From: Iningainema tapete BLCC-T55
GTDB taxonomy: Bacteria > Cyanobacteriota > Cyanobacteriia > Cyanobacteriales > Nostocaceae
Reading direction: 5' to 3'
Assembly (NCBI RefSeq): GCF_014698965.1
Contig: NZ_JACXAE010000093.1
Span: 1 to 64,000, forward strand
DNA length: 64,000 nt
Under the pieces are notes generated by a model. That model did not search any database. It was not told the DNA's origin and saw nothing but the letters and a program-made list of their open reading frames with translations. Position 1 is the first letter of the stretch, and each line of letters begins with the position of its first letter. Below are positions 8,501 through 29,507 of the stretch, piece by piece. A program made the translations under genes and the position numbers.

Positions 8501-8519
8501 AGTACTCTTACTATTTGCA

Positions 8520-9565: not shown

Positions 9566-9569
9566 TGGC

Positions 9570-9854: not shown

Positions 9855-9897
9855 GACTCAATCGCGATTCTTAATTACGTTCAATATAGTTCTTCTA

Positions 9898-9919
9898 GGG
9901 TGGGTTGTCCTGCCCACCC
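9898..9919 (+). terminator. Hairpin GGGTGGG / CCCACCC
   Basis: GGGTGGG-TTGTCCTG-CCCACCC followed by TTATTTTA: a rho-independent-like terminator behind the Rpn fragment, identical in position to that of the full copy (34106-34127). Confidence 0.65.
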
Positions 9920-10019
9920 TTATTTTAGGACAGACGAGACGCGATCGCAATAAGTGGGTGATTGCTGGTTTTTGAGATTGTTGACCCCACAGGCGGCGCA
10001 AGCATGAGCGCCCCTATCC

Positions 10020-12176
10020 CTACCTCTGCTTCACAGCCTGCACCGCAGCATCAGCATTAACTAAACCACGACCGAAGAAATACTCTTGGGCTGACACTGG
10101 TTTCGCCTTTGGGAAAATACCGGAAGGTCGTGAAACTGGAGTATCTACAACAGTTCCAAAACCGACTTCTTTTTGCAGACGATAGCGATTAGCATCCGCT
10201 TTAGAAAGGTTGAGTCCATCATAGGTAGCAGTCTTTTTCAAAATTGACACCATTTCCTCCCGACTCAAACGTCGTTTCGGGTCTTCCCCCTTCATGAGTG
10301 CCACCACTGCCGATACAATGGGAGCCGAGAAAGAAGTCCCCTGTACCTGAACGTACTTACCTACAGGGTCTAAAGCCACACCCCAAGAATTGTCTGGTAC
10401 GGAGATTCCTTGCCAAAAACCATCCAGCCAAGTGCCACCTGTAGTTAAAATACCCCCACTCATACCATTTTGGATTTCTCCCCCTGGTGCAACTACATCT
10501 AATCCCCCACCATAACTGCTGTAGTAGGTACGATTACCCGTCATATTTGTAGCACCAACCGATACAACCCCAGGAATACCAGCAGGGAAGGCAACACCAT
10601 CTAAATTTTCATTCCCCGCAGAAGCGATCATGACTAAATTGCGGTTAGTATCCAATACATCAAAAATTTGTTCGGTTAGTCCCTCATCGGGAAGCAAACC
10701 TGCCAAACTCATATTGATGACATCAACATTTCTACTGGCAGCATAACCAATTGCTTCTACCAAAGAAGCGGAATTAATCGCACCACCCAAGCCAAACACC
10801 CGCACTGGTAAAATTTGGGTATTGGGTGCAACTCCGAGAACACCAGCTTTATCTGGAGAATTGGCAGCAATTACCCCCGCAGACCAAGTACCGTGAAACT
10901 CGCTACTGATTTGAAGACGAATGTAATTCCGAATATAATGTGCTATTTCACTGGGAGAAGCTTTAGGATTGCGTTTTTTGAATGTATCGGCAAGTTGTTG
11001 ATATTTCTTTAATAATTGGTCAGTAGGTAATTTAAAAGTATCTTGAAATTCTGTTTGAAGGAGCGCTAATTCTTGAGAATTCAAGCGTGTGTCTGCATCT
11101 CCTTTTCCACTGCTAGAGAAGTCCCAACCGTATTCTTCGTCAGGTAACTTATCGGGATGATTTCCAGATTTATAGGTATTCTGTACCAAATCGGGATGAT
11201 CCCATTGAATCAAGCTATCGATTACCGCTACCACAACCCCACGTCCACCATTACTGTGCTTCCATGCTTCCGTTGCGCGAATATCAGTACGGGCTAACAG
11301 TTGACCGCGTTTTGGGGTACTATTTAAATGCCATTGCAAGGGCAGTAATTTTGCACGGACAGGTGTGTCTTTTGGTTGGGGTAACTGTGCTAACTGCTGT
11401 TCCAAGCGTTGATTGGCGTTCGGGGTTTCTGGTAAATTAGCGAGATTCGCCAATAGTTTCGATTGTTGGTATGATGTGGCTTGAATGAAATTTGGTGTAG
11501 CAGATTGCACTCCTGTCACCAATTCTAATTGATTCGCCACATTTAAAATCTCTGTCCCGGATACCGACTTAGAACGGACTAAATAGCGATTTTTACTAAA
11601 CCTCAACGGGCGAACCACTTCTAAATCGTGACGCAATAATACCATTTGTCTTTGACTTTCAGACATATCCCGGTCAAAGCCGATCGCAATCTCATTGGGT
11701 AGAACAATAACTTGCTCAGATTCTTTTTCTCTGGATGTTTCCTCCGATTTGCGCGTTAAAATAGGTAGAGTTTCTTTTACGTAAGACTGCTTTTGAATCT
11801 GCTGTTGAACTGAATTTAAGGAACTACGAGTGCCGTTCGTTACATTCACCAGGGCAATATTTTCTCCCAAAGGTTTTACATCGATATCAAAGCCATTATT
11901 GTTAATACTGCGAGTATTGCCACCACCACGTCTTAAATCCTGTTGTAACTGTAAGTGTAAAGGTTGGATGGAGCGAGAGCGGGTGTTAGTTGGTTTAAAG
12001 CTGACAGCAATGCGATCGCGTCGCAAGTTGAGAGGAATTTTTTGACCGTAAAATGTATAAAACAATTCATCTGTTGTTTGGGCTTGCGCGAGTTCCCGGT
12101 ATTGGTGAGGGATGAAGGGAAGATTGGTGGAACAGAGACAAGCTGCTAAAACCAGACTTGAGAGGAAACGTTTCAT
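10020..12176 (-). CDS. Exported S8 family (subtilisin-like) serine protease
   Basis: Subtilase of 718 residues. A signal peptide at 1-33 (MKRFLSSLVLAACLC...AQAQT) is followed by a long prodomain-like region (about 40-290) and the S8 domain (about 300-700). The catalytic triad is Asp320 (VVAVIDS), His428 (FHGTWSAG) and Ser615 (GTSFSAP). The oxyanion Asn region SAGNEN is present. It should act in the periplasm or outside the cell on proteins, after prodomain removal. It is transcribed divergently from the sigma-like operon, and its promoter region carries the shared bipartite island element on the minus strand, about 30 bases before the start. This links it to the CHAT/caspase genes that follow. 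Confidence 0.92.
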   Translation of the reverse strand: MKRFLSSLVLAACLCSTNLPFIPHQYRELAQAQTTDELFYTFYGQKIPLNLRRDRIAVSFKPTNTRSRSIQPLHLQLQQDLRRGGGNTRSINNNGFDIDVKPLGENIALVNVTNGTRSSLNSVQQQIQKQSYVKETLPILTRKSEETSREKESEQVIVLPNEIAIGFDRDMSESQRQMVLLRHDLEVVRPLRFSKNRYLVRSKSVSGTEILNVANQLELVTGVQSATPNFIQATSYQQSKLLANLANLPETPNANQRLEQQLAQLPQPKDTPVRAKLLPLQWHLNSTPKRGQLLARTDIRATEAWKHSNGGRGVVVAVIDSLIQWDHPDLVQNTYKSGNHPDKLPDEEYGWDFSSSGKGDADTRLNSQELALLQTEFQDTFKLPTDQLLKKYQQLADTFKKRNPKASPSEIAHYIRNYIRLQISSEFHGTWSAGVIAANSPDKAGVLGVAPNTQILPVRVFGLGGAINSASLVEAIGYAASRNVDVINMSLAGLLPDEGLTEQIFDVLDTNRNLVMIASAGNENLDGVAFPAGIPGVVSVGATNMTGNRTYYSSYGGGLDVVAPGGEIQNGMSGGILTTGGTWLDGFWQGISVPDNSWGVALDPVGKYVQVQGTSFSAPIVSAVVALMKGEDPKRRLSREEMVSILKKTATYDGLNLSKADANRYRLQKEVGFGTVVDTPVSRPSGIFPKAKPVSAQEYFFGRGLVNADAAVQAVKQR

Positions 12177-12207
12177 AATTGCGACTGGATTAATTTTGCT
12201 GGATATG

Positions 12208-12237
12208 TGTATTTCTCAGCTTTTGGAGGATATGCAA
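12208..12237 (-). promoter_or_regulatory. Shared bipartite element, copy 1 (subtilase promoter)
   Basis: On the minus strand: TTGCATATCCT, then a spacer, then CTGAGAAATACA. It has the same spacing and words as the copies before the TPR-CHAT and TPR genes, and sits about 30 bases before the subtilase start. It can be read as -35 TTGCAT and -10 AAATAC with a 17-nt spacer, with extra conserved bases. Confidence 0.6.
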
Positions 12238-12255
12238 TTTTCCAAAATTGCATAA
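12230..12255. promoter_or_regulatory. Palindrome joining two divergent promoter elements
   Basis: ATATGCAATTTT-CC-AAAATTGCATAA is a near-perfect inverted repeat. Its two arms are the TTGCATAW halves of copies 1 and 2 of the shared element, back to back. It may be a single operator serving both the subtilase and the sigma-like operon. Confidence 0.55.
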
Positions 12256-12279
12256 GGTCAATTTCCTCAGAATTATGAA
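12248..12279 (+). promoter_or_regulatory. Shared bipartite element, copy 2 (sigma-like operon)
   Basis: TTGCATAA, 9 nt, then CCTCAGAATTATG on the plus strand. It lies about 120 bases before the sigma-like start, implying a leader of about 115 bases. It is the least conserved full copy (GGT instead of CCT after the first block, AATTAT instead of AAATAC). Confidence 0.55.
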
Positions 12280-12400
12280 AAGATGACAGGAGTTGTTGTC
12301 AAATCAGATACTTAGTATAAAATGTATCAAGATATAAATTCTTGCGTATAGGAGCAGTTGCTATGTGACAATTAACAATGATGTTTAAATAAAAGTACTT

Positions 12401-13819
12401 ATGGGTAATGCTTCAAGATATTGGAACTTAGTGAGGATTGATGCGGGAGGTAAGCAGAAAATTCTGGAAATACCTGCTGCTATGTCTTTTTTCACACAGA
12501 TGTTTGCCCCTTTGGTACTAGATGATGATGTACCTGACAGGGATATTCAGTTTCAACTGTTACATTTATATAATAATGCACTTAGCGAAACAGCTTTGGT
12601 TGCAGAGCGTTGTTTACTTTGCTTTCTTTCTTGGATTTTAGAGCAAGGGTGTGTGCAATTAGCCAGGAAATTTGGTGAAAAGCATAATTTTCGTTGCAGT
12701 GATTTGTTACCTTTTGTCCTAGATGATGATGGTAAATTATCATCAGCAAGTAAGTATAAATGTTTTGCTCGGCAAATTCTTCAGAGTTTTGATTCGCAGC
12801 AAAGTAGCTTGACTACTTGGGCGACGATCAAGGTAAAACAGCATCCCGAATTAAATAAATTTCTATTGGAGTGCGGTCTTTATTTGATTAGTGATTGGGC
12901 TATTTTAAATGATACTCAACTTAAGCAATTGGAGCGTATTCTCAAGGAATTCTATACTTTGAGTGATATAGAAATTCAAGAAACACAGCATCTTCTCCAG
13001 AGTTATCATACTATATATCGCGTTCAAAGGCTACAACAAATTAGAAAAAAGGTAAGAAGTATATGTCCCGAACCAACTACTGAACAATTAGAAAATATTG
13101 CCCAATATATCATGAATAAAACGGGTCGATTATTTGATGCTGAAACTGTGAGACGAAAGTTGAAAAAGCTAGCTTCTCAATTACGAGAGTATCGAATTTA
13201 TGTTCGGGGTGGTTCTTTAGCAATAGATTCTCTAGATGCTGTGAATCCGGGCAAGTTTAATTCCTTATTAGAAGAAAAAATTGATACCTCAATAATTGAT
13301 ATTGTTGAATCAAAGGACGAACAAGTTGAGTTTTTGCAGTTTTATCGTCATCAATTTCAAATTTCTTTACAGCAAGCTTTAGCCAAAATTACAGAATCAA
13401 GAGTAAGACAATTACAGCATAAAAAAGGAAATAAAGCACAGAAGTTTTTAACTGCTCTCGAACTATCTCAATGTCAGAAGTTAGCAATGAAGGAAATCGC
13501 CGAGCAACTGGGAATGAGAGCGCAAGATGCAGTGACGAAGTTATTGAAGTTAAAGGAGATTCGGACTGATGTACAACAGGAAATGTTGATGGCTTTAAAG
13601 GATTTGGTGAAAGAAAAAGCTAAAGTATATGCAGATGTCAAAGCTTTGAAGCAATTAGATGAGCAACTGACAATTTTACTTTCGTCAGAAATCAGCAAGA
13701 TTATCGAAAATGCAGAAATTCAATCTCGAACGATGAAAAGCAATTTAAAAACAGATATTTTTGCAGAACGTTTATGTGAATACCTCGATATTAGAAAACA
13801 AGACAATAATCAATTATGA
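12401..13819 (+). CDS. Sigma-70-like regulatory protein, divergent
   Basis: Protein of 472 residues. A C-terminal stretch (MKEIAEQLGMRAQDAVTKLLKL, about residue 363) looks like a helix-turn-helix of sigma region 4. The middle (ILQSFDSQQSSLTTWATIKV, then LISDWAILND) parallels the conserved core of a cyanobacterial sigma-70-like family that is usually encoded next to DUF1822 genes. Classical sigma region 2 is not obvious. Its stop overlaps the DUF1822 start (ATGA), so the pair is translationally coupled. Its own promoter region has the shared island element. It may direct transcription of the island; this is inference. An alternative is a non-sigma DNA-binding regulator. Confidence 0.6.
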   Translation: MGNASRYWNLVRIDAGGKQKILEIPAAMSFFTQMFAPLVLDDDVPDRDIQFQLLHLYNNALSETALVAERCLLCFLSWILEQGCVQLARKFGEKHNFRCSDLLPFVLDDDGKLSSASKYKCFARQILQSFDSQQSSLTTWATIKVKQHPELNKFLLECGLYLISDWAILNDTQLKQLERILKEFYTLSDIEIQETQHLLQSYHTIYRVQRLQQIRKKVRSICPEPTTEQLENIAQYIMNKTGRLFDAETVRRKLKKLASQLREYRIYVRGGSLAIDSLDAVNPGKFNSLLEEKIDTSIIDIVESKDEQVEFLQFYRHQFQISLQQALAKITESRVRQLQHKKGNKAQKFLTALELSQCQKLAMKEIAEQLGMRAQDAVTKLLKLKEIRTDVQQEMLMALKDLVKEKAKVYADVKALKQLDEQLTILLSSEISKIIENAEIQSRTMKSNLKTDIFAERLCEYLDIRKQDNNQL

Positions 13820-15174
13820 ATAACCTAAAAAGTAATATTTTACCCATGTCTTATCTAGATTTTGAAACATTACCAACGTCAGCGATCGCTTTATCATCTA
13901 ATGATATTGAGGGAGCCGCAGAAATTAGCGATCGCATTCCTGATGAATTGAAGCAATGGCAAGTTTATCTCAATTGTTTGGCTTTATCTGCTTTTGAGCA
14001 ATGGTTAGAGGAAAGGACAGAATTAGTAGCGACTAATCGAGATAAATGTACGATTTTACAACCAGCTTTGGCGAATTTTATTAATGGTGTTGCTAATTTA
14101 CAAGTTGGTGAATTTAAGGTTTGTCTGATTGCTACTGGTAGTCTCAGCGATGAAATGGTGAGTTTACCCAGAGTCGTTATTGATTTACCTGAGTTTATTC
14201 CCCATTTTTATGTTTTGGTGGAGGTGTTAGAAGAACAAGAAGCAGCGAATGTTTATGCTTTTTTATCCTATCCAGAATTGATGGAGACGTTAGATGTAAC
14301 GTCTCTACAGTCGGATTGGAATTATCAATTACCAATATCGTGTTTTGATGATAATCCAGACCGTTTGTTGCTATATTTCCGTTGTCTGGAAGTATCAGCA
14401 ATATCTTTACCAGCAATTCCCACAAACCGAACTGGGATTTTAGCAACGGTACAAAATCAATTACTGGAATTATTACCTGAGTTGCGATCGCCTGAACGAG
14501 AATTATCCAATATTTTAACCTGGGAACAAGCAACTGCTGTGTTTACTAATCCAGAATTACTGAATTGGGTTTATACCTTACAAAAGCAACATTTAGAAAC
14601 ACAAAATCAGCCTTCAGTCAATACTTCTCTACAGGATTTAATCAAATTAATTACCCAACCAGCACTCAACGCTGGACGTTGGTTGTGGAATGAGTTAGAT
14701 GAATTAGCGCAGGAACTTTCTTGGGTGCTGTTACCAATTGCATCAGCTTCCGCAATGCGTTCAATGCGTAGTCCAGCGGAAGAGTTTGAGGTAATTGTTA
14801 CTCAACTACGACAGAGGGGTTTGGAAATTCCCATACAAGCAAGGGGTGCGTATCAGGATTTACTGTTAGCTGGGATACCTCTACGGTTGTATGCGGTAAC
14901 TTGGCATTTGGTAGCAGAATCTGAGCAACCGAAGTGGAGTTTATTATTAATTTTAGGCGCACCTGCTTTAAGTAATTTACCTTCTAATATTAAACTTAGG
15001 GTCAGCGACCAAACGGGTATTTTAGAGGAACTGGGATTAAATGTGGAAAGTAAAGATTCTTACATCTTTACCTGTGTAGTGGGTAATTGGGATGAAAAGT
15101 TTTTGGTGAGTGTAAGTTTGATGGATGGGGTTGAGGTTACCTTATTACCGTTTGCGTTTGATTTGGGGAGGTAG
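13816..15174 (+). CDS. DUF1822 family protein
   Basis: Protein of 452 residues of the cyanobacterial DUF1822 family (conserved opening with FETLPTSAIAL; central LQNWL-like and ARWLWNELDELAQELSWVLLP regions; C-terminal FIFT-like strands). No catalytic motif is known; the family commonly sits between a sigma-like gene and CHASE2/CHAT genes, as it does here. A palindromic repeat (P3, 14282-14308) is embedded in frame at about residues 156-164 (METLDVTSLQ), apparently as a tolerated insertion. It starts inside the upstream gene's stop (ATGA), so expression is coupled to the sigma-like protein. It may be its regulator, but no data show this. Confidence 0.75.
   Translation: MNNLKSNILPMSYLDFETLPTSAIALSSNDIEGAAEISDRIPDELKQWQVYLNCLALSAFEQWLEERTELVATNRDKCTILQPALANFINGVANLQVGEFKVCLIATGSLSDEMVSLPRVVIDLPEFIPHFYVLVEVLEEQEAANVYAFLSYPELMETLDVTSLQSDWNYQLPISCFDDNPDRLLLYFRCLEVSAISLPAIPTNRTGILATVQNQLLELLPELRSPERELSNILTWEQATAVFTNPELLNWVYTLQKQHLETQNQPSVNTSLQDLIKLITQPALNAGRWLWNELDELAQELSWVLLPIASASAMRSMRSPAEEFEVIVTQLRQRGLEIPIQARGAYQDLLLAGIPLRLYAVTWHLVAESEQPKWSLLLILGAPALSNLPSNIKLRVSDQTGILEELGLNVESKDSYIFTCVVGNWDEKFLVSVSLMDGVEVTLLPFAFDLGR
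14282..14308. repeat. Palindromic repeat P3 inside the DUF1822 gene
   Basis: GGAGACGTTA-GA-TGTAACGTCTCTAC: GTAGAGACG family with one worn arm, in frame within coding sequence. Confidence 0.7.
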
Positions 15175-15581: not shown

Positions 15582-15878
15582 AGGATATTACGGAATTTTT
15601 TCTATTATAAAGGACTGCCTAGCCCAACGCTTGGGGCTGAACCTAGACCCATACATTTGGGTATACCTCAAAAAGACTTTTTTGGCTTTTCTTCACAATA
15701 TCTTTACTTTACAAATGACTAGCAGTGTTTCTACGGAATATCTCCTCAAGGTATCGTAACTATGCTGAGGTGAATTTTCGAGTTTTGCATCAATTTTTGC
15801 ATAACCTGGGTTGCCCTCAGAAATACAAGAGATTGAACAAGCGATCGCCTGTAGCCATACATACAAGAGGAGTAACCA
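15582..15878. other. Promoter region of the giant TPR-CHAT gene
   Basis: About 297 bases with a GC-rich inverted repeat, AGCCCAA-CGC-TTGGGGCT, near 15619-15637, two HIP1-like sites and, near its end, copy 3 of the shared element. No RNA gene seen. Confidence 0.4.
15797..15828 (+). promoter_or_regulatory. Shared bipartite element, copy 3 (giant TPR-CHAT)
   Basis: TTGCATAACCT, spacer, then CCTCAGAAATACA, ending about 50 bases before the ATG at 15879. Spacing is one base longer than in copies 1, 2 and 4. Confidence 0.65.
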
Positions 15879-18800
15879 ATGTCTAACCGTTTGAAGGGTT
15901 TCGCCCTAGCTACTTTAGTGTTTTCACTGACTTGTGGTGTTGGAGTGGCAGCAAGTGATGTGGTAGTCAAGCATACACTGGCACAAACTGCGACAAGTTC
16001 AGATCGGAAAGCGGAAGCGGATAAGTTGTTTCAGGATGGGGTGCAGCAGTTTCGGCGTGGAGAATATCCCAAGGCGTTGCTGACTTATCAACGGGTGTTG
16101 GAGATCCGGCGACAATTGGGGGATAAACCTGGGGAAGCGGCAACTTTAAATAAATTGGGAGAGATTTACAACGGATTGAATCAACCTACACAAGCTTTGG
16201 AAGTTTTGCAGCAATCTGTAAATCTGTATAAATTAATTAAAGATAAAGGTGCTGTTGGCGAAGTTTTGGATAATATTGGCACAAGTTATAGATTAAAAAT
16301 TGATACTACCAAAGCGTTAGAATTTTACCAACAAGCTTTAGCAATTCGTCTAGAAGTAAAAGATAGAGAAGGTGAGGGTAAGACACTAAGTAATATTGGA
16401 TTTGCTTACAGTAATCAAGAACAATATCCTAAAGCTGTAGAAACTTTACAACAAGCTTTGGCTATTCATAAAGAAGTCAAAGATAAATATCGCGAAGGGT
16501 ATACATTACTTAGAATTGGGATAGTTTATGGGAATTTGCGTGAATATAAACGTGAATTTGAATTTTATCAACAATCCTTAATCTTAAATAGGGAATTGGG
16601 AAATAAAGATGGGGAGTTTCGCGTTCTATTAAATATTGGATGGCATTATAACAGTCAACAAGATTATGTTCGTGCTGTAGAATTTTGGCAGCATTCATTG
16701 GTAATTGCGCGAGAAGTTCAAAATAAATCACTAGAAGCTATCATTCTTAATAATATTGCTGATGCTTACTCCAGTCAAAAAGAATATGGCAAAGCGATTG
16801 AATTTTATCAGCAAGCATTAACCTTAGCTAGAGAAGTCAAAGATAAATCAAAGGAAGCAGATATTCTTCAGATGATGGGGAATATTTACTTTATTCAGAA
16901 ACAGTATAAGCAAGCTAGTCAAATATATGAACAAGCATTAGCCGTAGCTAGAGAAGCTAGAGATAAATCACGAGAAGCTAATATTCTGACAGAAATTGGA
17001 AAAGTTTCTTTTCAACAAAAACAATATCCACAGGCGATTGAAAATTATCAAAAAGCACTTATTATTGCACAAGAATTAAAAAAGAAGCCTCTAGAATTAG
17101 GTATTCTTAGAGCATTAGGAAACATTTACTTCCGGCAAAATCAGTATGAACAAGCAATTAAAATCTACAAACAAGCATTAGGTATTGCACGAGAGGAAAA
17201 AGATAAATCTCTAGAAAGTCGTATCTTAGCAGAGATTGGAGATACTTATAATGAGCAAAAGATGTATGACAGCGCTCTTCAATTTTATCAGTCAGCCCTA
17301 CCACTTCTAACAGAAATAGAAGATAACGCATACAAGGCTAATTTCTTGATTGTTATAGGGCAAACTTATTTATTTCAAAATAAAGATGACCAGGCAATTG
17401 AATTATTTCAACGAGCGTTAAAGATTTTCCAAACGCTTAAAGATAAAGAAGGACAAATGACTGCTTTGTATAAAATCATTGCAGGTCATAATTCTAAAGC
17501 TGTAGACTTCTTTATTAGAGAATTATATAGTCAGGCGAAAGTAGAATATTCTCGTGTAATAGAACTAGCTCCATCAGTTATTAATCTTGCAAAAGAATTA
17601 AATAAGCCAGAAATTCAAGCATCGACTTTAGGTGACTTAGGTGCTGCTTATGCTTTTTTACGTGAAAATAAAAAGGCAATTGAAACTTTACAACAAGCTG
17701 CCAGAATGGCTCGTGATTTGAAAGCATTAGTGACTGAAGCAACAGCTTTAGGTGCCTTAGCCAACATTTATCGATATCAAGGAGAACATCATAAACAATT
17801 AGAAGTTAACCAGCGATATTTAGAAATAAAAAGAGAAGAAAAATCCAAATTACCCCAAGAATATGGTTTATTGGGAGAAGTAATTGCATTAAAATCTCTA
17901 GCTAGTACTTATAATATTTTGGGTGAGCATGAAAAGGCAGTTGAGATATACCAGCAGGCTTTACTTATAGCCCAGCAAATTAAGATTGATAAATTACCAT
18001 CTAATCTTCGGGATAATGGTGTCCAAGCAGAAATTTCTTCTTTGGGCGGCTTACAGACAAGTTATAGTGTCCTTGGGAAATCGAATCAAGCTTTAGATTT
18101 TGCTCAACAGGCAGTCAAAAAAGCTCAAGCATCAGGTATAAAAGAGTATTATGCAGAAGCTTTGATTGACTTAGGTGAATCACACACTAATGATTTCAAA
18201 GATTATCCCCAGGCAATTAAAGTTATTAACCAGGCTCTAATTATAGCACGGCAAATAAAAGAACCTAAAATCGAGGCACAAGCATTAAAACAACTTAGCG
18301 ATACTTACACAAAACAAGGTAATCACGCTTCTGCACTAGAATCTGCACAGCAACTGTTAGCTATAGCCACGCGGGTAGAAAGTCCTTCTCTAGAAGAAGA
18401 TGCTTTAAATAATCTACGAGCCATTTACTTTAGTCAGGGAAACTATAGTAAATCTCTAGAAATAGCACAGCAAAATCTGCAAATAGTACAAAGCAAAATG
18501 GTTGGAACTGAAATTATTGTTTTGCTCAATCTTATTGAGAATTACATTTATGTAGGAGATACGAATCAAGCATTTGAGACAGCACGACAAGCTTTAGCTT
18601 TAACAAGAAAGCAGTCAAATTTATTTTTTGAAGTAGGTGTTTTAATATACCTTAGTAAAGTATATAAATTCCAAGGAGAATATGACAAGGGTATTAAAAT
18701 AGCAGAGCAAGCATTAAGCATTTCACGTCAAATAAATAATTTCACTTTAGAAATAGAATCGATAGCTGCCTTGGCTAGCATTTATGAAGCTACGGGACAA

Positions 18801-21362
18801 TATCAACAAATTACATCCCTTGGTGAACCTCTACTTGGTAAAATCCAAAAGTTAAATAATCCAGTTAAAAAGGCAGAAGTTTTAATTGTTGTAGGTAAAG
18901 CATACGGATTAACTGGGCAGTATACTAAAGGGAAACAATTAGTCGAGCAAGGTTTAGCAACTGCCCGTGAGTTGAAAAATCCACTATTGGAAGTCCAAGC
19001 TTTAACAGCATTAGGTAGTATTTATAGTTCCCTTAATAATTATGGGCAAGCTTTAGATTTAAGACAGCAAAGTTTAAAAATTGTACAGCAACTCAAAAGT
19101 CCTATCCTTCAAGTTGATACCTTATACTTTTTGGGAGACATTTATAGCAAACTAGGAGACTACAAAAGTAGTGCTAAGTATTATGAACAAGCATTGGCAA
19201 TAGTCAAACAGTTCAACAATCGACAGGGTGAAGGTACACTTTTATTAGCTCTAGCTAGTAATTACTTTTATCAAGGAGAAGCGAATAAAACGATAGATTC
19301 AACAACAAAAGCATTAGCAATTTTTACAGATATTAAAGAACCACGCTTAGAAGCGTTAGCAAAATTAGTTCTTAGTGCTGGCTATAGTGAATCTAATAAT
19401 GATGCTAAAGCGATGGAATCTGCTCAAGCATTTTTGGACTTTGCTAGAAAAAACCAAAATAGTGTTTGGGAAAAGTTAGCACTCAGCAATATTGGAAGTC
19501 TGCATCGTAAGTTTGGCAGAACAGAACAAGCAATAGTTGCCTATCAGCAAGCATTGGCAATTCAAACTGATAATCAAGTAAAAGGTGCAGATGCTGGTAT
19601 TTATGCTGGTTTAGCACGGGTTTATCAGGATTTAAACCAACCTAACATTGCCATTACCTACTACAAGGAGTCTGTTAATAGACTTGAAGAAATTCGTCGT
19701 GGTATCGAAGGTTTACCCAAAGAATTACAAAACTCTTTCTTGAATTCAACTATTGATTTCGACAAAATGAAGGTATCGGATATATATGCTCAACTTGCAG
19801 GTTTGTTAAATTCTCAAGGAAGATATAAAGAAGCATTCCAAATACGGTTACTCATCGAAGAACAAGAAATTCGAGAAGCAAGAGGTTCTAGAGGAGTCGC
19901 AGAAGGTAAATTAAATATCCCTCTGACTCCCACAGAAGCAAAGATTCCCGAACAAGGAAAAATAACAATTGCTTTAGCAAGTCAGATAAGTGAATGCGAA
20001 AGAACTAATTGCAGTCAACGCACTGAACTTAATAATAAGCTTACTGATTCAATCCAACAGTCTCTTAAAGAATTGCAGAAAATTGATAAAGAAATTCGGA
20101 ATGATCGTGCTAAAGACGATCAATTCTTTAATCCGACAGGATTTGCAAAAGCCCAAGCAATTGTTGAAGCCCAAGCAAAGGAAACACGGGCAAACACCGT
20201 GATGATTTATCCTTTGGTATTGGAAAATGAATTGTGGTTACAAGTATATGGCGAAAAAGGTCTAGTCAAAACAGAGAAAGTCCCAGTATCAAGGAAGGAA
20301 TTAAGAAATACAGTCAAAAAATTTCGTGAGTTAATGGGAAAATGTGAACCAGAAGGTTATTACTGTGGTGTAAAAGATATTGCCGAAATACAGCCAGTCA
20401 GCCAACAACTCTACAAATGGCTAATTGAACCATTAGAGGTGGAATTAAAGGATAATCAAGTAAAGAATCTGATTTTTACCCTTCATAGAGAAATTCGCTA
20501 TATTCCCATGAGCGCACTTCATGATGGCAAGCAATACCTAATCGAAAAATACACAATTCATAATGTCACTACAGAAAGCTTTAACGAGCAAGAGAAACCA
20601 CCTACTAATATTCAAACTACTCCCCTTTTAGCAATGGGATTATCGGAATCTGCTCCCGATTCAAATCCTAATTCCAATAAGCATTTCCGGGCTTTACGAT
20701 ATGTACCCAAGGAATTAGACGCTATTGTTCGTGAAAATACCAACGATAAGCAAGGAATTTATCCAGGAAAAGAGTATTTAAATAAAATATTCAATTTTGA
20801 AATATTGCGAGATAATTTGAACAAATACAAAATTCTTCACCTTGCTACTCACGGTGTATTTGACTCCACAAGCCCAGAACAATCTTATATCTTAATGGGA
20901 ACTGGTAAGCCATTAACACCGATTATGATTTCTAGCTTGATAGGATTAAAGGATATTCATTTAGTTGTTTTGTCAGCTTGTCAAACAGCCCTTGCTACTT
21001 CTAAAAATCAAGATGATCCTCAAGACGGTGTAGAAATTAACACCCTTGCTTACGAGTTTATGAATCGAGGCGCTAAATCGGTAATGGCTTCTCTGTGGAT
21101 AGTTGATGATCTCAGTACATCTCAACTAATACAACTATTTTACAAAAATCTTGCTACTGGCAAAATGACGAAATCTCAAGCATTACGTCAAGCCCAATTA
21201 AGTTTGCTCAAAGGTAATCACTATACAGGAGAAAATGATGCTAAACGTGGTGTCCATTTAGAGAGAGAACTTGGTGCATTACCCAGGAAAGAACAACGAA
21301 AAAGTAGTTACTCTCACCCTTACTACTGGGCACCATTTATTTTAATTGGTAACGGTTTATAA
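15879..21362 (+). CDS. Giant exported TPR-CHAT protein
   Basis: Protein of 1827 residues. A signal peptide is visible (MSNRLKGFALATLVFSL, cleavage region LAQT near 39), preceded by a good ribosome site (AGAGGAG). Residues about 45-1370 form an array of about 25-30 TPR units of 40 residues (pattern KAIEFYQQALAIAREVKDK-S-EA-ILxxIG-Y). The C-terminal CHAT domain (about 1490-1825) has its His at 1658 (ATHGVFD) and Cys at 1701 (LSACQTA), the caspase-fold dyad. The TPR array should bind protein partners; CHAT members such as separase and the bacterial CHAT proteases cleave proteins. A signal peptide places it in the periplasm or outside. It is 72 bases upstream of a CHAT-CHASE2 gene and likely co-transcribed, with a perfect 24-nt palindrome in the gap. 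Confidence 0.93.
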   Translation: MSNRLKGFALATLVFSLTCGVGVAASDVVVKHTLAQTATSSDRKAEADKLFQDGVQQFRRGEYPKALLTYQRVLEIRRQLGDKPGEAATLNKLGEIYNGLNQPTQALEVLQQSVNLYKLIKDKGAVGEVLDNIGTSYRLKIDTTKALEFYQQALAIRLEVKDREGEGKTLSNIGFAYSNQEQYPKAVETLQQALAIHKEVKDKYREGYTLLRIGIVYGNLREYKREFEFYQQSLILNRELGNKDGEFRVLLNIGWHYNSQQDYVRAVEFWQHSLVIAREVQNKSLEAIILNNIADAYSSQKEYGKAIEFYQQALTLAREVKDKSKEADILQMMGNIYFIQKQYKQASQIYEQALAVAREARDKSREANILTEIGKVSFQQKQYPQAIENYQKALIIAQELKKKPLELGILRALGNIYFRQNQYEQAIKIYKQALGIAREEKDKSLESRILAEIGDTYNEQKMYDSALQFYQSALPLLTEIEDNAYKANFLIVIGQTYLFQNKDDQAIELFQRALKIFQTLKDKEGQMTALYKIIAGHNSKAVDFFIRELYSQAKVEYSRVIELAPSVINLAKELNKPEIQASTLGDLGAAYAFLRENKKAIETLQQAARMARDLKALVTEATALGALANIYRYQGEHHKQLEVNQRYLEIKREEKSKLPQEYGLLGEVIALKSLASTYNILGEHEKAVEIYQQALLIAQQIKIDKLPSNLRDNGVQAEISSLGGLQTSYSVLGKSNQALDFAQQAVKKAQASGIKEYYAEALIDLGESHTNDFKDYPQAIKVINQALIIARQIKEPKIEAQALKQLSDTYTKQGNHASALESAQQLLAIATRVESPSLEEDALNNLRAIYFSQGNYSKSLEIAQQNLQIVQSKMVGTEIIVLLNLIENYIYVGDTNQAFETARQALALTRKQSNLFFEVGVLIYLSKVYKFQGEYDKGIKIAEQALSISRQINNFTLEIESIAALASIYEATGQYQQITSLGEPLLGKIQKLNNPVKKAEVLIVVGKAYGLTGQYTKGKQLVEQGLATARELKNPLLEVQALTALGSIYSSLNNYGQALDLRQQSLKIVQQLKSPILQVDTLYFLGDIYSKLGDYKSSAKYYEQALAIVKQFNNRQGEGTLLLALASNYFYQGEANKTIDSTTKALAIFTDIKEPRLEALAKLVLSAGYSESNNDAKAMESAQAFLDFARKNQNSVWEKLALSNIGSLHRKFGRTEQAIVAYQQALAIQTDNQVKGADAGIYAGLARVYQDLNQPNIAITYYKESVNRLEEIRRGIEGLPKELQNSFLNSTIDFDKMKVSDIYAQLAGLLNSQGRYKEAFQIRLLIEEQEIREARGSRGVAEGKLNIPLTPTEAKIPEQGKITIALASQISECERTNCSQRTELNNKLTDSIQQSLKELQKIDKEIRNDRAKDDQFFNPTGFAKAQAIVEAQAKETRANTVMIYPLVLENELWLQVYGEKGLVKTEKVPVSRKELRNTVKKFRELMGKCEPEGYYCGVKDIAEIQPVSQQLYKWLIEPLEVELKDNQVKNLIFTLHREIRYIPMSALHDGKQYLIEKYTIHNVTTESFNEQEKPPTNIQTTPLLAMGLSESAPDSNPNSNKHFRALRYVPKELDAIVRENTNDKQGIYPGKEYLNKIFNFEILRDNLNKYKILHLATHGVFDSTSPEQSYILMGTGKPLTPIMISSLIGLKDIHLVVLSACQTALATSKNQDDPQDGVEINTLAYEFMNRGAKSVMASLWIVDDLSTSQLIQLFYKNLATGKMTKSQALRQAQLSLLKGNHYTGENDAKRGVHLERELGALPRKEQRKSSYSHPYYWAPFILIGNGL

Positions 21363-21434: not shown

Positions 21435-23969
21435 ATGACTAATTTTTATCTCAAAGTTAAACACATCGAAAAACTTTGTTTATTTGAACTCACTTGGGGA
21501 AAAGGACAGCAGCTAAACGTCACAATTCCCTATCCTCAAAATCTCACTATCCTCTATCAAGATTGGCAACGTTCCTATCTAAATTATTACAATAATTACA
21601 CAACACAATCAGTACGTGGTAGGATTGCAGATAGTGGTGTCATTGCAACACCTCCTACTGACTGGCACGCAAAATTAGTCCAAGCTGAAGCTAAATTTTT
21701 ACCAGAATTTCATAAATGGTTGCGCTGCGGAGAATTATATGAAATTCGTATGGTATTAGCTAATGTGGCAGGGGAGAAAGGAAAAATAGAAACGCTTTCT
21801 GATTCACCGCAGACTATAAATCTTTTCCTTACTTGTAATACCATAGATTTAGAACGCTTTCCTTGGGAATCGTGGGAAATTGGTACAGAATTTGCACTTT
21901 CTTCTAGTAAGGTTCGCATTGTTCGCACACCGATAAATATTCATCAAGGATTTCGACAGCAAAATCATAGACTCACCCGCAAAGTTCGCGTGTTAGCAAT
22001 TTTAGGTGATGAAAGTGGCTTAGATTTTAAGGCTGAAAAGGAAGCAATACGTAAACTAAAACACATTATTGATGTGGAATTTGTAGGTTGGCAACCAGAA
22101 AAAAGTGTTCCCGACTTAAAAACTGAAATCAAAGATGCTATTACCTCAAACTTAGGTTGGGATATCTTATTTTTCGCTGGACATAGTAATGAAAACAATT
22201 TAACAGGTGGAGAAATTAGTATTGCCAAAAATGTCAGTTTATCGATTATTGAAGTAGCACCATTATTAGCGATCGCAGTAGAACGAGGTTTACAATTTGC
22301 GATTTTTAATTCCTGTAAGGGTTTGAATATTGCCAACTCCTTGATTGACTTGGGTTTGAGTCAAGTGGCTGTGATGCGCGAACCCGTTCATAATGCTGTA
22401 GCAGAGGAATTTTTACTACGATTTTTACAAGCTTTGGCTGAATTCAAAGATGTTCATGAAGCTTTATTATTAGCATCTCAATATCTGAAAACAGAGAAAA
22501 ACCTGACATATCCAAGTGCTTATTTAATCCCTTCTTTATTTCGTCATCCAGAAGCGCCTCTATTTCGGATTGAACCATTTGGTATTAAACAAAGGCTCAA
22601 AAAAATTATCCCAACTCAAAAAGAAGCTATAGCACTTGCAGCTTTATTCTTAATGAGTTTACAAATTCCCATCCAAAATAACTTATTAGGACGTAGATTG
22701 TGGGTGCAAGCTGTTTATAGACAACTAACAGGAAAATTTACTCAGCAGGATATTCCACCAGTTTTATTAGTACAAATTGATGATGAATCAATTACAAAGT
22801 CTGAAGGTAAAATTACTAATCCCAGACCGATGAACCGTGGATATATTGCGAGTTTAGTTGATAAACTAGTAGAAAAAGGAGCGAGAGTAGTAGGTGTTGA
22901 CTTTGTTTTAGATAGATATCATCCACAAGACGATAAAACTTTAGCTCAGTCGATAAAAAATGGGGTTAGTGCGTCTCCCAATCCAACTTGGTTTGTATTC
23001 GCAGGAACTATGCCTGATGGGGGAGGATGGCAGACTGTTATACCAGATATCGCTAATTTAAACTGGAGTTTAGATGGGGAAATTAGCCTATTATTTTGCG
23101 ATGAGATAAAACGTATACCTTGTTATATGACACTTTTCCCATCATTATTACCATCCTCAAGTTCTCATTCAAAACCATTAGGTTTTTCCAGTTTATTGGC
23201 TTTATCGCATCAGCTAGAAAATCCTACATCTACTTCATTGAAAGCTAGTGAAAATAATCCGCAAGTTCCCCAACCCAAACTAGATAGTCAAAGCAATTTT
23301 TGGCAGCAGTTAAATAATTATCTCAGTCATAATAAACATAATACAATTTTGCGATCGCCCCGTTCTCGGTTGCAACCAATCACAGATTATAGTACTATAA
23401 TTGCCCAAATGTGGCTGCATCCTATCATTGATTTTTCTATCCCTCCAAATCAAGTCTATGAATCTGTCCCAGCTTGGCAGCTTTTAGATAAAGACACTAA
23501 AAATTCACCTTTAGCAAACATACAAAAACAAGTAGTTATCATCGCGCCAGGGGGATATGGGGAAGCAGGAATGTCAATAGATAAAGAAGATAATTTCGAT
23601 TTACCCCCAGCACTAGATTTTTGGCGACTTCAACAAGGAAACAATCGCAGAATTATACCTGGTGGAGAAGTTCATGCATATATGGTGCATCATTTCCTCA
23701 GGCAGAGATTAGTCATACCCATTCCCGATGTCTGGATATTGGGGATTGCTGTCTTGATGGGAAAATATCTCTACTACTTATTACGCAAAAATCTCCAGTA
23801 TCGCTGGCAATGGCTGATGTTACTTACTTTACTAACAGGAGTTTATGGAATTATCAGCTTGGAAATCTACATATCATCCCTAGCTATTATTTTACCTTGG
23901 TTTTTACCATCTGCCACCGTTTGGACATATTTCATAACAGCTTTTTTACGGAGAAAAGTTCATGAATAA
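21435..23969 (+). CDS. CHAT-CHASE2 membrane protein
   Basis: Protein of 844 residues. N-terminal CHAT-like domain (about 130-380) with His250 (FFAGHSNENN) and Cys294 (FNSCKGLN). A hydrophobic segment at about 395-415 leads to a CHASE2 sensor domain (about 420-740; LVQIDDESI, MNRGYIASLVDKLVEKGARVVGVDFVLD), which in known proteins lies outside the membrane and senses unknown signals. Two to three C-terminal membrane helices (about 765-835) end the protein, with no cyclase, kinase or phosphatase output domain. So the only output module is the CHAT domain on the cytoplasmic side. It overlaps the next gene by 8 bases. Sensor-linked peptidase is an inference from domain order. Confidence 0.88.
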   Translation: MTNFYLKVKHIEKLCLFELTWGKGQQLNVTIPYPQNLTILYQDWQRSYLNYYNNYTTQSVRGRIADSGVIATPPTDWHAKLVQAEAKFLPEFHKWLRCGELYEIRMVLANVAGEKGKIETLSDSPQTINLFLTCNTIDLERFPWESWEIGTEFALSSSKVRIVRTPINIHQGFRQQNHRLTRKVRVLAILGDESGLDFKAEKEAIRKLKHIIDVEFVGWQPEKSVPDLKTEIKDAITSNLGWDILFFAGHSNENNLTGGEISIAKNVSLSIIEVAPLLAIAVERGLQFAIFNSCKGLNIANSLIDLGLSQVAVMREPVHNAVAEEFLLRFLQALAEFKDVHEALLLASQYLKTEKNLTYPSAYLIPSLFRHPEAPLFRIEPFGIKQRLKKIIPTQKEAIALAALFLMSLQIPIQNNLLGRRLWVQAVYRQLTGKFTQQDIPPVLLVQIDDESITKSEGKITNPRPMNRGYIASLVDKLVEKGARVVGVDFVLDRYHPQDDKTLAQSIKNGVSASPNPTWFVFAGTMPDGGGWQTVIPDIANLNWSLDGEISLLFCDEIKRIPCYMTLFPSLLPSSSSHSKPLGFSSLLALSHQLENPTSTSLKASENNPQVPQPKLDSQSNFWQQLNNYLSHNKHNTILRSPRSRLQPITDYSTIIAQMWLHPIIDFSIPPNQVYESVPAWQLLDKDTKNSPLANIQKQVVIIAPGGYGEAGMSIDKEDNFDLPPALDFWRLQQGNNRRIIPGGEVHAYMVHHFLRQRLVIPIPDVWILGIAVLMGKYLYYLLRKNLQYRWQWLMLLTLLTGVYGIISLEIYISSLAIILPWFLPSATVWTYFITAFLRRKVHE

Positions 23970-25379: not shown

Positions 25380-25410
25380 TTGCATATCCTCCTTTCCCTC
25401 AGAAATACAT
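25380..25410 (+). promoter_or_regulatory. Shared bipartite element, copy 4 (TPR gene)
   Basis: TTGCATATCCT, spacer, then CCTCAGAAATACAT, about 120 bases before the ATG at 25534. Together with copy 3 this is the best-conserved pair. Confidence 0.65.
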
Positions 25411-25533: not shown

Positions 25534-26193
25534 ATGAAAAAATTCACATTAGCACTTGGCATGGCTGTATTAGGTACAATTGTTTCCAGTCCCAAAGTAT
25601 TCGCAGAAAACCTCGAACAACCCGAACCAGTGCTCATTGCTCAAGCTAACCCTCAACTCAAGCCACAACTACAACTACCCTCAATTAAACTCCAATCTAC
25701 ACCTAACTCCAACCCTGAAAATAGTAACAATATCGAGACATTACTAAATCAGGCAGAAGAGTACCTAGAAAAGGGTAATTATGACAAAGTGGTTGAAAAT
25801 TGTAACAATGTCTTAGAACAGGATAAGAATAATTATGGAGCCTATATAATGCGAGGTTTAGCATACACCCAGCTAGAACAATACCAACCAGCAGTCAAGG
25901 ACTTTAACCAAGCAATTAACATTGAACCCAAATCTTATTACTCATACTTTGGGAGAGGTTTTGCTCGCTTCCACTTAAAAGAATACGAACAGTCACTAGC
26001 AGATTTTAATCAAACAATCAAACTGGAACCAGACTTTGCCCATGCTTATTTCTGGCGCGGTATTACTCAAGGTTATTTAGGTAATAAACAAGGAGCAGTT
26101 GCAGATTTACGACAAGCTGCGGAACTGTATAAGAAAGAAGGTAAAACCGACAATATGAAGACAGCACTTGACCTTTTAAAGCAAATTAGTTAG
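25534..26193 (+). CDS. Exported TPR protein
   Basis: Protein of 219 residues with signal peptide (MKKFTLALGMAVLGTIVSS...FAEN), a Pro/Gln-rich linker and three to four TPR units of 34 residues (AEEYLEKGNYDKVVENCNN; GLAYTQLEQYQPAVKDFNQAI; GFARFHLKEYEQSLADFNQTI; GITQGYLGNKQGAVADLRQAA). TPRs bind proteins. It carries the island's shared promoter element. A strong hairpin follows at 26210-26242. A role as partner to the TPR-CHAT proteins is inferred from position and promoter only. Confidence 0.88.
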   Translation: MKKFTLALGMAVLGTIVSSPKVFAENLEQPEPVLIAQANPQLKPQLQLPSIKLQSTPNSNPENSNNIETLLNQAEEYLEKGNYDKVVENCNNVLEQDKNNYGAYIMRGLAYTQLEQYQPAVKDFNQAINIEPKSYYSYFGRGFARFHLKEYEQSLADFNQTIKLEPDFAHAYFWRGITQGYLGNKQGAVADLRQAAELYKKEGKTDNMKTALDLLKQIS

Positions 26194-26717: not shown

Positions 26718-29507
26718 ATGACTATGCGTTCCTGCAAAATTGGGTTAGGTGTGTTTATTTGTTTGTTGGTTGTTTCTTCAACTTCATTAAGTTCTAGCTT
26801 GCCGATGGTATTTACAGCGTCGCAGGTGTTAGCGCAGACTAATACTGACCGCAAAGCAGAAGCAGATAGGCTATTACAACTAGGTATACAGCAGTTTCAA
26901 GCCCATCTACTTGAAACTGCATTACAATCTTTTCAAAAAGCACTTATTATTTACCGGAACATCAAAAATCGTAGAGGTGAAGGTTTTGCCCTGCTTGGTT
27001 TGGGATTGGTTAACTCTAGGTTGCCGGATTATCCTAAACAGATGAATTACTACAAACAGTCTTTAGCAATTGCACGGGAAATTAAAGACTCAGAATTAGA
27101 AGCGCTAGTGCAGAAAATGCTTGCAGATGCAAAAATCAGGAGTAATCCTCAGAAATCAGAAGCAGATAGACTAAACCAACAAGGTATTCAGCACTCTCAA
27201 AATGGTCAATTTAAAGCAGCTTTGCTATCTTGGGAACAAGCATTACAGATATATCGAGAAATTAAAGATCGCCCTGGTGAAGGTGGTGTTTTGGGTAATC
27301 TGGGAGCTACTTACGGTTCGCTAGGAGACTATCAAAAAGCTATTGATTTCAACCAACAAAGTTTAGTGATCGCCAAAGAATTAGGCAATCGCGCTGATGA
27401 AGGTGGTGCGCTGGGTAATATGGGAATTGCTTACCGTTACCTGGGAGACTATAAAAAAGCTATTGAATTCCACCAACAAGAATTAGCAATTGCCACAGAA
27501 ATCGGTGATCGTGATTCTGTCGGTCGTGTTCTGGGGAATCTAGGGGTTGCTTATTATAACCTTGGGGACTATCAAAAAGCCATTGAATTCCACCAACAAC
27601 GTTTAGCAATCGCTAGAGAAATCGGCGATCGCGCTGGTGAAGGTCGTGCGTTGGGTAATCTAGGAAATGCTTACTTTGAACTTGGGAACTATCAAAAAGC
27701 TATTGAGTTTCACCAACAAAATTTAGCAATTGCCAAAGAAATTGGTAATCGCGCTGCTGAAGCTCGTGCGCTAGGTAATCTAGGAAATGCTTACTCTGAA
27801 CTTGAAAATTATCAAAAAGCTATTGAGTTTCACCAACAAAATTTAGCAATTACTAAAGAAATCGGCAATCGCGCTTTGGTTGGTGTAAGATTGCTTAATC
27901 TAGGAAATGCTTACTCTGGACTTGGGAACTATCAAAAAGCCATTGAGTTCTACGAACAAAGCCTAGCAATCGCTAAAGAAATCAGTGTTCGTAAAGTTGA
28001 AGGTGTTACGCTGAATAATCTGGGAGCTGCTTTGTTCTACTCTTGGAAGTTTGCAGAAGCGGAAAAAGTCCTAAAACAGGGGATTGAGGTTTGGAAGTCT
28101 CAACGGAGTAGATTAGGTAATCGGGATGATTTTAAAATTTCCATTTTTGAGCAACAAGCACGCACCTATCGTATCTTACAAAAAGTGCTGATCGCCCAAA
28201 ATCAAACCGATGCAGCCTTAGAAGTTGCAGAAAGTGGACGCGCAAGGGCTTTTGTCGATTTACTGGCTAGTCGTCTTGACCCTAATGGTAATGTTTCTTC
28301 CTCCACAGACGCAACAATTGAGCAAATTAAACAAATTGCCAAATCACAAAATGCTACCCTCGTTCAATATTCTATTATTTATGATAGTTTCAAAACTGCA
28401 GGTAAACAACAAGCCAAAGAATCAGAACTATACATATGGGTAATCAAGCCCACAGGTGAAGCGATCTTCCGCAAAGCCGACTTCAAACCTTTATGGCAGA
28501 AAGAAAAGACAAATTTAGAGCAATTAGTTAAAATCAGCCGTCGCTCAATTAGTGTCAGAAGCGTTGAAATTGAAAACGTACCTAAACCAAATCCAGAAAA
28601 TCAAAAGAAATGCTTACAAAAACTCCACGAAATATTAATCTCACCCATCGCTGACTTGTTACCGAAAAAAGAAACCGACAGAGTAGTATTCATCCCTCAA
28701 GAATCATTATTTCTAGTTCCCTTCCCTGCATTACAAAACGAAAACGGCAAATATCTGATAGAAAAACACACCATCCTCACATCTCCATCAATTCAGGTTT
28801 TAGATTTAACAAAAAAACAACATCAAAAACTTGGAAACAAACCCATACAGACTAATAAGATGCTGATTGTGGGTAATCCCATCATGCCTAAAGTCCCAAT
28901 AAAAGTTGGCGAAACGCCGCAACAATTACCACCTTTAGCTGGCGCAGAAAAAGAAGCAATAGCGATCGCCAATTTATTTAAAATCCAACCCTTAATTGGC
29001 AAGCAAGCTACAGAATCCACCGTAGTCGAACGCTTACCCCAAGCACAAATTATTCACTTTGCCACCCACGGATTATTTGATGATATTCGGGGTTTAGATA
29101 GTTCCATTGCTCTAACACCAGAAAATCCTACCTCCCTCTCATCCCCTCTAAGCAAAGAAGATAAAAAACGCGATGGACTCCTAACAGCAGACGAAATTCT
29201 CGATCTAAAACTCAACGCCAATTTAGTAGTTCTCAGTGCTTGCGATACAGGTAGAGGAAAAATTACAGGGGACGGTGTTATCGGTTTATCTCGCTCTTTA
29301 ATCAGCGCAGGTACACCCAGCGTCATCGTCTCCCTGTGGTCTGTAGATGATGGTTCAACCGCATTTTTAATGACCGAATTTTATCAAAACTTGCAACGAA
29401 AAATGGACAAAGCCACAGCATTAAGAAAAGCTATGCTTGACACCAAGAAAAAATATTCAAGTCCATCACAATGGGCAGCTTTTACTCTCATTGGGGAGGC
29501 TGAATGA
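26718..29507 (+). CDS. Exported TPR-CHAT protein
   Basis: Protein of 929 residues. Signal peptide at 1-40 (ending VLAQT), as in the giant CHAT protein. Eight or more TPR units lie at about 45-450; those at about 190-430 are almost identical 40-residue repeats (GNYQKAIEFHQQNLAIAKE type). The CHAT domain (about 600-925) has His784 (ATHGLFD) and Cys842 (LSACDTG), both intact, and GDGVIGLSR and SLWSVDD motifs. Predicted exported caspase-fold protease whose TPR array binds a target or inhibitor. No shared promoter element is visible directly upstream, because a CHAT remnant occupies that space; it may be read from the TPR gene's promoter or a hidden one. Confidence 0.93.
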   Translation: MTMRSCKIGLGVFICLLVVSSTSLSSSLPMVFTASQVLAQTNTDRKAEADRLLQLGIQQFQAHLLETALQSFQKALIIYRNIKNRRGEGFALLGLGLVNSRLPDYPKQMNYYKQSLAIAREIKDSELEALVQKMLADAKIRSNPQKSEADRLNQQGIQHSQNGQFKAALLSWEQALQIYREIKDRPGEGGVLGNLGATYGSLGDYQKAIDFNQQSLVIAKELGNRADEGGALGNMGIAYRYLGDYKKAIEFHQQELAIATEIGDRDSVGRVLGNLGVAYYNLGDYQKAIEFHQQRLAIAREIGDRAGEGRALGNLGNAYFELGNYQKAIEFHQQNLAIAKEIGNRAAEARALGNLGNAYSELENYQKAIEFHQQNLAITKEIGNRALVGVRLLNLGNAYSGLGNYQKAIEFYEQSLAIAKEISVRKVEGVTLNNLGAALFYSWKFAEAEKVLKQGIEVWKSQRSRLGNRDDFKISIFEQQARTYRILQKVLIAQNQTDAALEVAESGRARAFVDLLASRLDPNGNVSSSTDATIEQIKQIAKSQNATLVQYSIIYDSFKTAGKQQAKESELYIWVIKPTGEAIFRKADFKPLWQKEKTNLEQLVKISRRSISVRSVEIENVPKPNPENQKKCLQKLHEILISPIADLLPKKETDRVVFIPQESLFLVPFPALQNENGKYLIEKHTILTSPSIQVLDLTKKQHQKLGNKPIQTNKMLIVGNPIMPKVPIKVGETPQQLPPLAGAEKEAIAIANLFKIQPLIGKQATESTVVERLPQAQIIHFATHGLFDDIRGLDSSIALTPENPTSLSSPLSKEDKKRDGLLTADEILDLKLNANLVVLSACDTGRGKITGDGVIGLSRSLISAGTPSVIVSLWSVDDGSTAFLMTEFYQNLQRKMDKATALRKAMLDTKKKYSSPSQWAAFTLIGEAE

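What the first reader, a model, noticed from the sequence alone, without database searches (positions are those of the whole stretch)
12230..12255. Back-to-back promoter halves form one palindromic operator
The TTGCATAW blocks of the subtilase promoter and the sigma-like promoter are fused into a near-perfect 26-nt inverted repeat (arms ATATGCAATTTT and AAAATTGCATAA around CC). It lies between divergent genes, so one bound dimer or shared factor could set both directions.
Basis: partly seen in the sequence, partly recalled or inferred. Interest (0 to 1): 0.55.

Follow-up and report, generated by a model that had tools for sequence, protein, structure and literature searches.

The report
Two back-to-back promoters, one hidden regulon
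The palindrome is where two outward-facing gene switches of the same type happen to touch, and that switch type recurs across cyanobacterial genomes in front of exported caspase-like and related proteins, probably read by an unrecognised sigma factor encoded next door.

Summary
The inverted repeat is real (perfect 11-bp arms, 12231-12254; about 0.08% in simulated intergenic regions) but is not one operator. Each half is the -35-like block of its own outward promoter, TTGCATA-N12-TSAGAAWTA, for the subtilase (12237-12210, -) and the 12401 gene (12248-12275, +). Over 14 places in ten genomes both promoters persist while the gap between their -35 blocks is 10, 25, 28 or 54 bp; either also occurs alone.

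The promoter occurs 13 times in this genome (reversed control 0) and 150 times in 217 family genomes (control 4). It follows close 12401 homologues: 3.4 (2.3 without this genome) and 1.3 sites per genome against 0.27 without. A C-variant gives 75 sites against 0 control in 243 order genomes, 66 in the 30 with a close homologue. Here 12 of 13 sites precede TPR-CHAT (6), TPR (4), subtilase or the 12401 gene; elsewhere also C14 caspases.

12401 matches no Pfam sigma model, yet its predicted fold aligns best with sigma-70 subunits. Best reading: an unrecognised sigma-like family, usually near DUF1822, driving this regulon. Binding by 12401 is inferred.

The parts
12231..12254 (.). Inverted repeat, 11-bp perfect arms around CC, formed by two -35-like heptamers plus their A/T tracts
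   Evidence: spacing not conserved in orthologues
12210..12237 (-). Outward promoter of the subtilase: TTGCATA (12237-12231), N12, TGAGAAATA (12218-12210); 33 nt to the ATG
   Evidence: conserved in orthologues
12248..12275 (+). Outward promoter of the sigma-like gene: TTGCATA (12248-12254), N12, TCAGAATTA (12267-12275); 125 nt to the ATG
   Evidence: looser form YTGCATA-N11..13-NSAGAR in 27 of 59 homologues' upstream 350 nt, reversed pattern 0 of 59
10020..12176 (-). Subtilase (Peptidase_S8) with export-like N-terminus, left target
   Evidence: E 4e-46
12401..13819 (+). Sigma-like protein, 472 aa, no Pfam match; candidate reader of the motif
   Evidence: no family for it, E up to 1; predicted fold aligns to sigma-70 subunits
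13816..15174 (+). DUF1822 protein overlapping the end of the sigma-like gene; candidate partner or anti-sigma (inferred)
   Evidence: DUF1822-like sequence in 52 of 60 homologue loci
15797..15825 (+). Third copy of the promoter (13-nt spacer)
15879..21362 (+). TPR-CHAT protein, 1827 aa, export-like N-terminus
   Evidence: CHAT E 9e-60
21435..23969 (+). CHASE2-CHAT protein; no promoter copy directly before it in the window scan
25380..25407 (+). Fourth copy of the promoter
25534..26193 (+). TPR protein, 219 aa, export-like N-terminus
26718..29507 (+). TPR-CHAT protein, 929 aa; no promoter copy found before it here; a TPR protein with a like N-terminus in G407 (L243) has one 307 nt upstream
29734..32004 (+). 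Caspase-family protein (Peptidase_C14 + DUF4384); no promoter copy found before it here; C14 proteins in other genomes stand behind one

Best explanation
The 26-nt palindrome is the contact point of two independent, divergent promoters of one class. Each reads outward as A/T tract, TTGCATA (-35-like), 12-13 nt, TSAGAAWTA (-10-like), then often a start codon within about 15-130 nt. The class defines a regulon rich in proteins with export-like N-termini: TPR-CHAT and C14 caspase-fold proteins, TPR proteins and a subtilase. It is most likely read by the sigma-like family to which 12401 belongs, whose own gene often carries the motif. Shown: motif, spacing, enrichment, recurring target families, co-occurrence with the sigma-like gene, structural likeness of a predicted model to sigma-70. 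Inferred: that 12401 or a paralogue binds it, that the blocks are -35 and -10 elements, and that DUF1822 controls the sigma-like protein. With -35 blocks 10 bp apart, two holoenzymes probably interfere upstream; this too is inference.
For: TTGCATAN{11,13}TSAGAAWTA: 13 sites in own genome, 0 reversed control; 150 in 217 family genomes, 4 control. Sites per genome: 3.4 in 10 genomes with a homologue at E<=1e-180 (2.3 in 9 without the own genome, from which the motif was drawn), 1.27 in 59 at 1e-180..1e-80, 0.32 in 28 weaker, 0.27 in 120 without one at 1e-20 (Mann-Whitney p about 8e-13, without own genome 2e-12, relatedness not corrected). Variant CTGCATAASN{10,12}YSAGARWTA: 75 sites and 0 control in 243 order genomes; 66 lie in 15 of the 30 genomes with a homologue at about 1e-80 or better. 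PWM scan (trained on 90 sites that include these): four window sites at 32-44 bits, nothing else at 9 or more; six Markov controls reached 11.6 at most. Own genome: 12 of 13 sites precede TPR-CHAT (6), TPR (4), subtilase or the sigma-like gene. Other genomes: 54 of 83 sites in homologue-rich genomes precede an ORF with export-like N-terminus or of the own-target families, against 1 of 15 in genomes without. Halves persist at variable gap or alone. Own-gene motif in 27 of 59 homologue upstreams, reversed 0. Fold: the 50 rows listed for residues 40-272 are, by title, sigma factors, many about 3 A over 91-96 residues.
Against: No wet-lab data. 12401 has no Pfam, NCBIfam or PDB sequence match to a sigma; profile-profile against 14 of the 16 sigma factors found in this genome is weak (8-10% probability), though it falls on the C-terminal HTH. 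Foldseek alone gives no significant match (best E 0.16, a sigma-A chain, and 1.4, a globin); the aligner's Z of 6.6-8.5 lies in the range its notes call ambiguous for helical models. 32 of 59 homologue genes lack the own-gene motif, including the own-genome paralogues on C31 and C80. Half of the 30 genomes with a close homologue show no C-variant site. Genomes without a detected homologue also have sites, three of them before a target-type gene (L270, L319, L325). 29 of 83 sites in homologue-rich genomes have no recognised target, and some of these sites repeat a background site also seen in genomes without the gene. Which paralogue reads the motif is unresolved.
Confidence: 0.78

Rival explanations
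1. One palindromic operator: a dimeric regulator binds the whole dyad and sets both genes.
For: Perfect 11-bp arms, rare by chance; four genomes share the 10-bp gap.
Against: The gap is 25, 28 or 54 bp in six other genomes, differences that are not whole helical turns (arithmetic); three of the four 10-bp genomes carry TGGCATA on one side; sites stand alone elsewhere, and none of the other 11 exact own-genome sites has an opposed heptamer within 60 nt.
Confidence: 0.05
2. The bipartite motif is a site for a conventional activator (possibly 12401 acting as one) working with a housekeeping sigma.
For: 12401 has no recognisable sigma sequence profile; activator sites can overlap the -35 region (general knowledge).
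Against: Both blocks are conserved at 12 or 13 nt (62 and 28 of 90 sites) and are neither direct nor inverted repeats of each other, as expected of -35/-10 reading; predicted sigma-2-like fold.
Confidence: 0.13
3. The motif is a sigma promoter read by another sigma of the genome; 12401 is merely a target that travels with the clusters.
For: 16 Pfam-type sigma factors in the genome; some motif genomes have no detected 12401 homologue.
Confidence: 0.12
4. A palindromic mobile repeat or RNA hairpin without promoter role.
For: The window holds other palindromic repeats.
Against: The dyad occurs once in the genome; halves are oriented toward genes and carry a second block; no terminator-like site in 12100-12500.
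Confidence: 0.02

Closest known systems
Alternative (ECF-type) sigma-70 regulons with autoregulated -35/-10 promoters
   Same: Bipartite promoter with near-fixed spacer, motif before the regulator's own gene in many genomes, regulator gene beside targets, a partner gene overlapping its end
   Different: The protein is invisible to Pfam sigma profiles, is 472 aa long, and the motif (YTGCATA...SAGARWTA) is unlike the GGAAC/CGTC type of many ECF promoters (that type recalled, not from a call)
CASP-sigma / Csx30 / Csx29 of type III-E CRISPR (PMC10028731, passages read)
   Same: A sigma factor linked to a TPR-CHAT protease; there the protease cleaves an inhibitor of the sigma
   Different: No CRISPR protein turned up among the proteins I scanned; most CHAT proteins here have export-like N-termini; DUF1822 as inhibitor is untested
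EACC2-caspase neighbourhoods with ECF sigma and DUF1822 (PMC8195603, passages read)
   Same: Caspase, ECF-type sigma and DUF1822 in one neighbourhood
   Different: The passages seen name no promoter motif or regulon; whether its sigma is this family was not determined
Metacaspase operons with sigma-70 genes in Myxococcus (PMC3501461, passages read)
   Same: Sigma genes beside caspase homologues
   Different: Different phylum; no promoter class in the passages seen

Membership tests
Sigma-70 family | Sigma-2 (and 3/4) fold | tested here: inconclusive
   Predicted model of residues 40-272 (pLDDT 88): the 50 listed aligner rows are by title sigma factors, Z 6.6-8.5, e.g. 8b3z SigE N-terminal domain, 79 aligned at 2.8 A; full model likewise, but many rows at 17-21 A; Foldseek E>0.1 and Z is in the ambiguous band
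Sigma-70 family | Match to sigma-70 sequence profiles | tested here: not met
   No family for the window protein at E<=1 and none among the 25 of 73 families shown for 40 members; profile-profile with own-genome sigmas 8-10%
Sigma-70 family | Binds core RNAP and directs initiation | not testable with these tools
   needs biochemistry
Sigma-type regulon | Two-block promoter with near-fixed spacing before many genes | tested here: met
Sigma-type regulon | Regulator gene carries the promoter itself | tested here: met
   here, and in 27 of 59 homologue upstreams, reversed 0 of 59; 32 of 59 lack it; near-identical relatives included
Sigma-type regulon | Sites co-occur with the regulator across genomes | tested here: met
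   relatedness not corrected
Palindromic operator of a dimeric repressor/activator | Conserved dyad with fixed spacing | tested here: not met
   gaps 10, 25, 28 and 54 bp over 14 places
CASP-sigma/Csx30-type protease-released sigma | Inhibitor cleaved by CHAT protease | not testable with these tools
   DUF1822-like neighbour in 52 of 60 loci; function untested

The most novel reading that the evidence does not exclude
A sigma-factor family that profile-based surveys miss, usually near a DUF1822 gene, runs a widespread cyanobacterial regulon of exported caspase-fold (CHAT, C14) and subtilase proteins; DUF1822 is its anti-sigma, released by one of the regulon's own proteases, giving a self-amplifying proteolytic response like CASP-sigma without CRISPR.
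Probability: 0.25. Interest if true: 0.85.

Novelty: new variant of a known kind. Interest (0 to 1): 0.62.

Why it matters
Cyanobacteria carry many CHAT and caspase-like proteins, and I found nothing in the passages read on when they are made. A readable promoter class predicts their joint control and names a candidate regulator that a sigma census built on Pfam sigma domains would miss (PMC11119718, passages read, classifies by such domains). It makes the question of what switches prokaryotic caspase-like proteins on directly testable.

Tried and rejected
Single dyad operator: rejected on spacing and free-standing sites. Terminator: none in 12100-12500. Consensus sigma-70 promoter scan: 2 hits against 1.3 by chance, uninformative. 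The looser pattern without WTA had a sizeable background in genomes lacking the homologue, so counts rest on the stricter pattern; the reversed-pattern control is imperfect, since sites in genomes without the gene (32) exceed all control hits (4). Viral contigs: four pattern candidates, none a relative. The first alignment of intergenic regions mixed strands because loci come in contig orientation; redone by site. In one search hits were keyed by locus and overlapping loci counted twice; one search replaces it. In one search I had added by hand a homologue place on G280:C39 that no search listed; it is only a 69-residue fragment, and recounts without it (52 of 109, not 54). The panel came from this genome's own targets, so it tests recurrence of the same families. 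The export test is a crude hydrophobicity rule. Sites read for targets: 83 plus 2 too near a contig end, of 96 in homologue-rich genomes other than the own; 15 of 32 in genomes without a homologue (17 repeats of two orthologous sites in two genera left out) and 9 of 9 weak ones (4 of 9 with a target). Of 75 C-variant sites, 30 were read. Foldseek lists globins and reaction centres for the domain model; not taken as relatives. Paper searches showed no report of this promoter class in the listings and passages I saw; papers outside that library were not searched.

Full report
Observation. The sequence at 12230-12255 is as stated. Arms of 11 bp are perfect around CC; the twelfth pair mismatches. 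Such a repeat arises in about 0.08% of first-order simulations of this intergenic region, and the dyad occurs once in the genome.

Anatomy. Reading outward from the centre, both sides show the same two blocks at the same distance: TTGCATA-N12-TCAGAATTA toward the 12401 gene and TTGCATA-N12-TGAGAAATA toward the subtilase. The palindrome is the meeting of the two upstream ends: the heptamers plus four bases of A/T tract each.

Orthologues. Protein and DNA searches of 217 family genomes and one scan of named genomes gave 14 distinct divergent places in ten genomes, the window included. One search was given 26 loci: 14 places, nine rows repeating a place under another locus, and three without a pair (L043, L073, L074). 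The gap between heptamers is 10 bp in G000, G311, G220 (two copies) and G270 (two copies); 25 or 28 in G256 (three copies); 28 in G257, G403 and Tolypothrix L032; 54 in G337 and G343. In the other 10-bp cases the subtilase side reads TGGCATA. Single sites: in G254 a full-length 12401 homologue has its site with no subtilase in the 13 kb held; in G280 the site stands before a 69-residue fragment of the gene; in G297 a subtilase homologue (44% identity) has a CTGCATA site with no opposite site and no 12401-type gene in the stretch held. A DNA match ending at the dyad in G423 is a motif site with no subtilase in the locus. The single promoters are therefore the conserved units.

A promoter class. 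TTGCATAN{11,13}TSAGAA occurs 18 times in the own genome against 1 reversed control; with WTA added, 13 against 0. Twelve of the 13 stand before a clear target: six TPR-CHAT genes (C9, two on C72, C76, C93 15879, C98), four TPR genes (C5, two on C31, C93 25534), the subtilase and the sigma-like gene; one C72 site has only an 89-aa ORF. In the window a weight-matrix scan finds only four sites: 12237 (-), 12248, 15797 and 25380 (+). In 217 family genomes the strict pattern has 150 sites against 4 control. Targets elsewhere include six scanned C14 caspases (L186, L191, L230, L232, L266 and, behind the C-variant, L335), a CHASE2-CHAT protein, WD40 and TPS proteins and a histidine kinase.

Link to the 12401 family. 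Site counts rise with closeness of the homologue: 34 sites in 10 genomes (13 of them in the own genome), 75 in 59, 9 in 28, and 32 in 120 without. By eye, 19 of those 32 are two orthologous sites repeated within two genera; a few sites in homologue-bearing genomes are repeats of the same background. In the order sample, several homologues at about 44-54% identity carry CTGCATAA...SAGAR before their own gene. The matching pattern gives 75 sites and no control hit in 243 genomes: 66 sites in 15 of 30 genomes with a homologue near 1e-80 or better, 3 in 43 weaker, 6 in 170 without. These tests are not corrected for relatedness or genome size.

What 12401 is. No Pfam, NCBIfam or PDB sequence match to a sigma. 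A 40-sequence alignment gave a model with pLDDT 81. The full model's 50 listed rows look by title like sigma subunits (Z 6.6-8.0), though many have rmsd of 17-21 A, as when domains are placed differently. Residues 40-272 alone (pLDDT 88) again give sigma factors, by title, in all 50 listed rows, many about 3 A over 91-96 residues, Z up to 8.5. Foldseek's own scores are not significant. Profile comparison touches only the C-terminal helix-turn-helix, residues 351-395. I take it as sigma-like, with membership in the sigma-70 family likely but not proven. DUF1822-like sequence was found in 52 of 60 homologue loci; that search did not test gene order.

Mechanism. Most likely each promoter is used independently by the same holoenzyme. 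The divergent pair couples the regulator's own expression to that of a protease. Where the blocks are 10 bp apart, simultaneous occupancy may be hindered; the wider gaps elsewhere show that this is not essential. The genome has at least two further 12401 paralogues (C31, C80), and the C31 one lies near two sites on its contig (1836 and 4083 against 8796-10166). Which paralogue reads which site is open.

Known work. In held papers I saw passages linking ECF sigma, DUF1822 and caspase neighbourhoods (PMC8195603), sigma genes in metacaspase operons (PMC3501461), and a TPR-CHAT protease relieving inhibition of a sigma (PMC10028731). None of the passages seen describes this promoter class.

Noticed in passing
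8472-8501, 45066-45089, 52615-52645, 60761-60789, 61935-61968: A family of long perfect palindromes (AGAGACG...CGTCTCT) scattered through the window.
   Followed up: no
21371-21394: Perfect 12-bp inverted repeat AGAGATGCAATTAATTGCATCTCT just after the TPR-CHAT stop codon; perhaps an intergenic hairpin.
   Followed up: no
L166 (G000:C31:1-14000): Second cluster in the genome: a 51%-identical sigma-like paralogue with two promoter copies before TPR genes.
   Followed up: partly
L177/L178, L179/L180, L069/L085/L087: The subtilase/sigma-like divergent unit is present in two copies in G220 and G270 and three in G256.
   Followed up: no
L167 (G000:C72, 289225 and 295092): Two tandem, alike TPR-CHAT genes of 1587 aa with identical promoters.
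   Followed up: no
L181 4701-4901 (G280:C39): A 69-residue fragment of the sigma-like gene that still has an intact promoter copy before it.
   Followed up: partly
29734-32004: Caspase-family gene in the same cluster without a promoter copy found directly upstream, while C14 genes elsewhere have one.
   Followed up: partly
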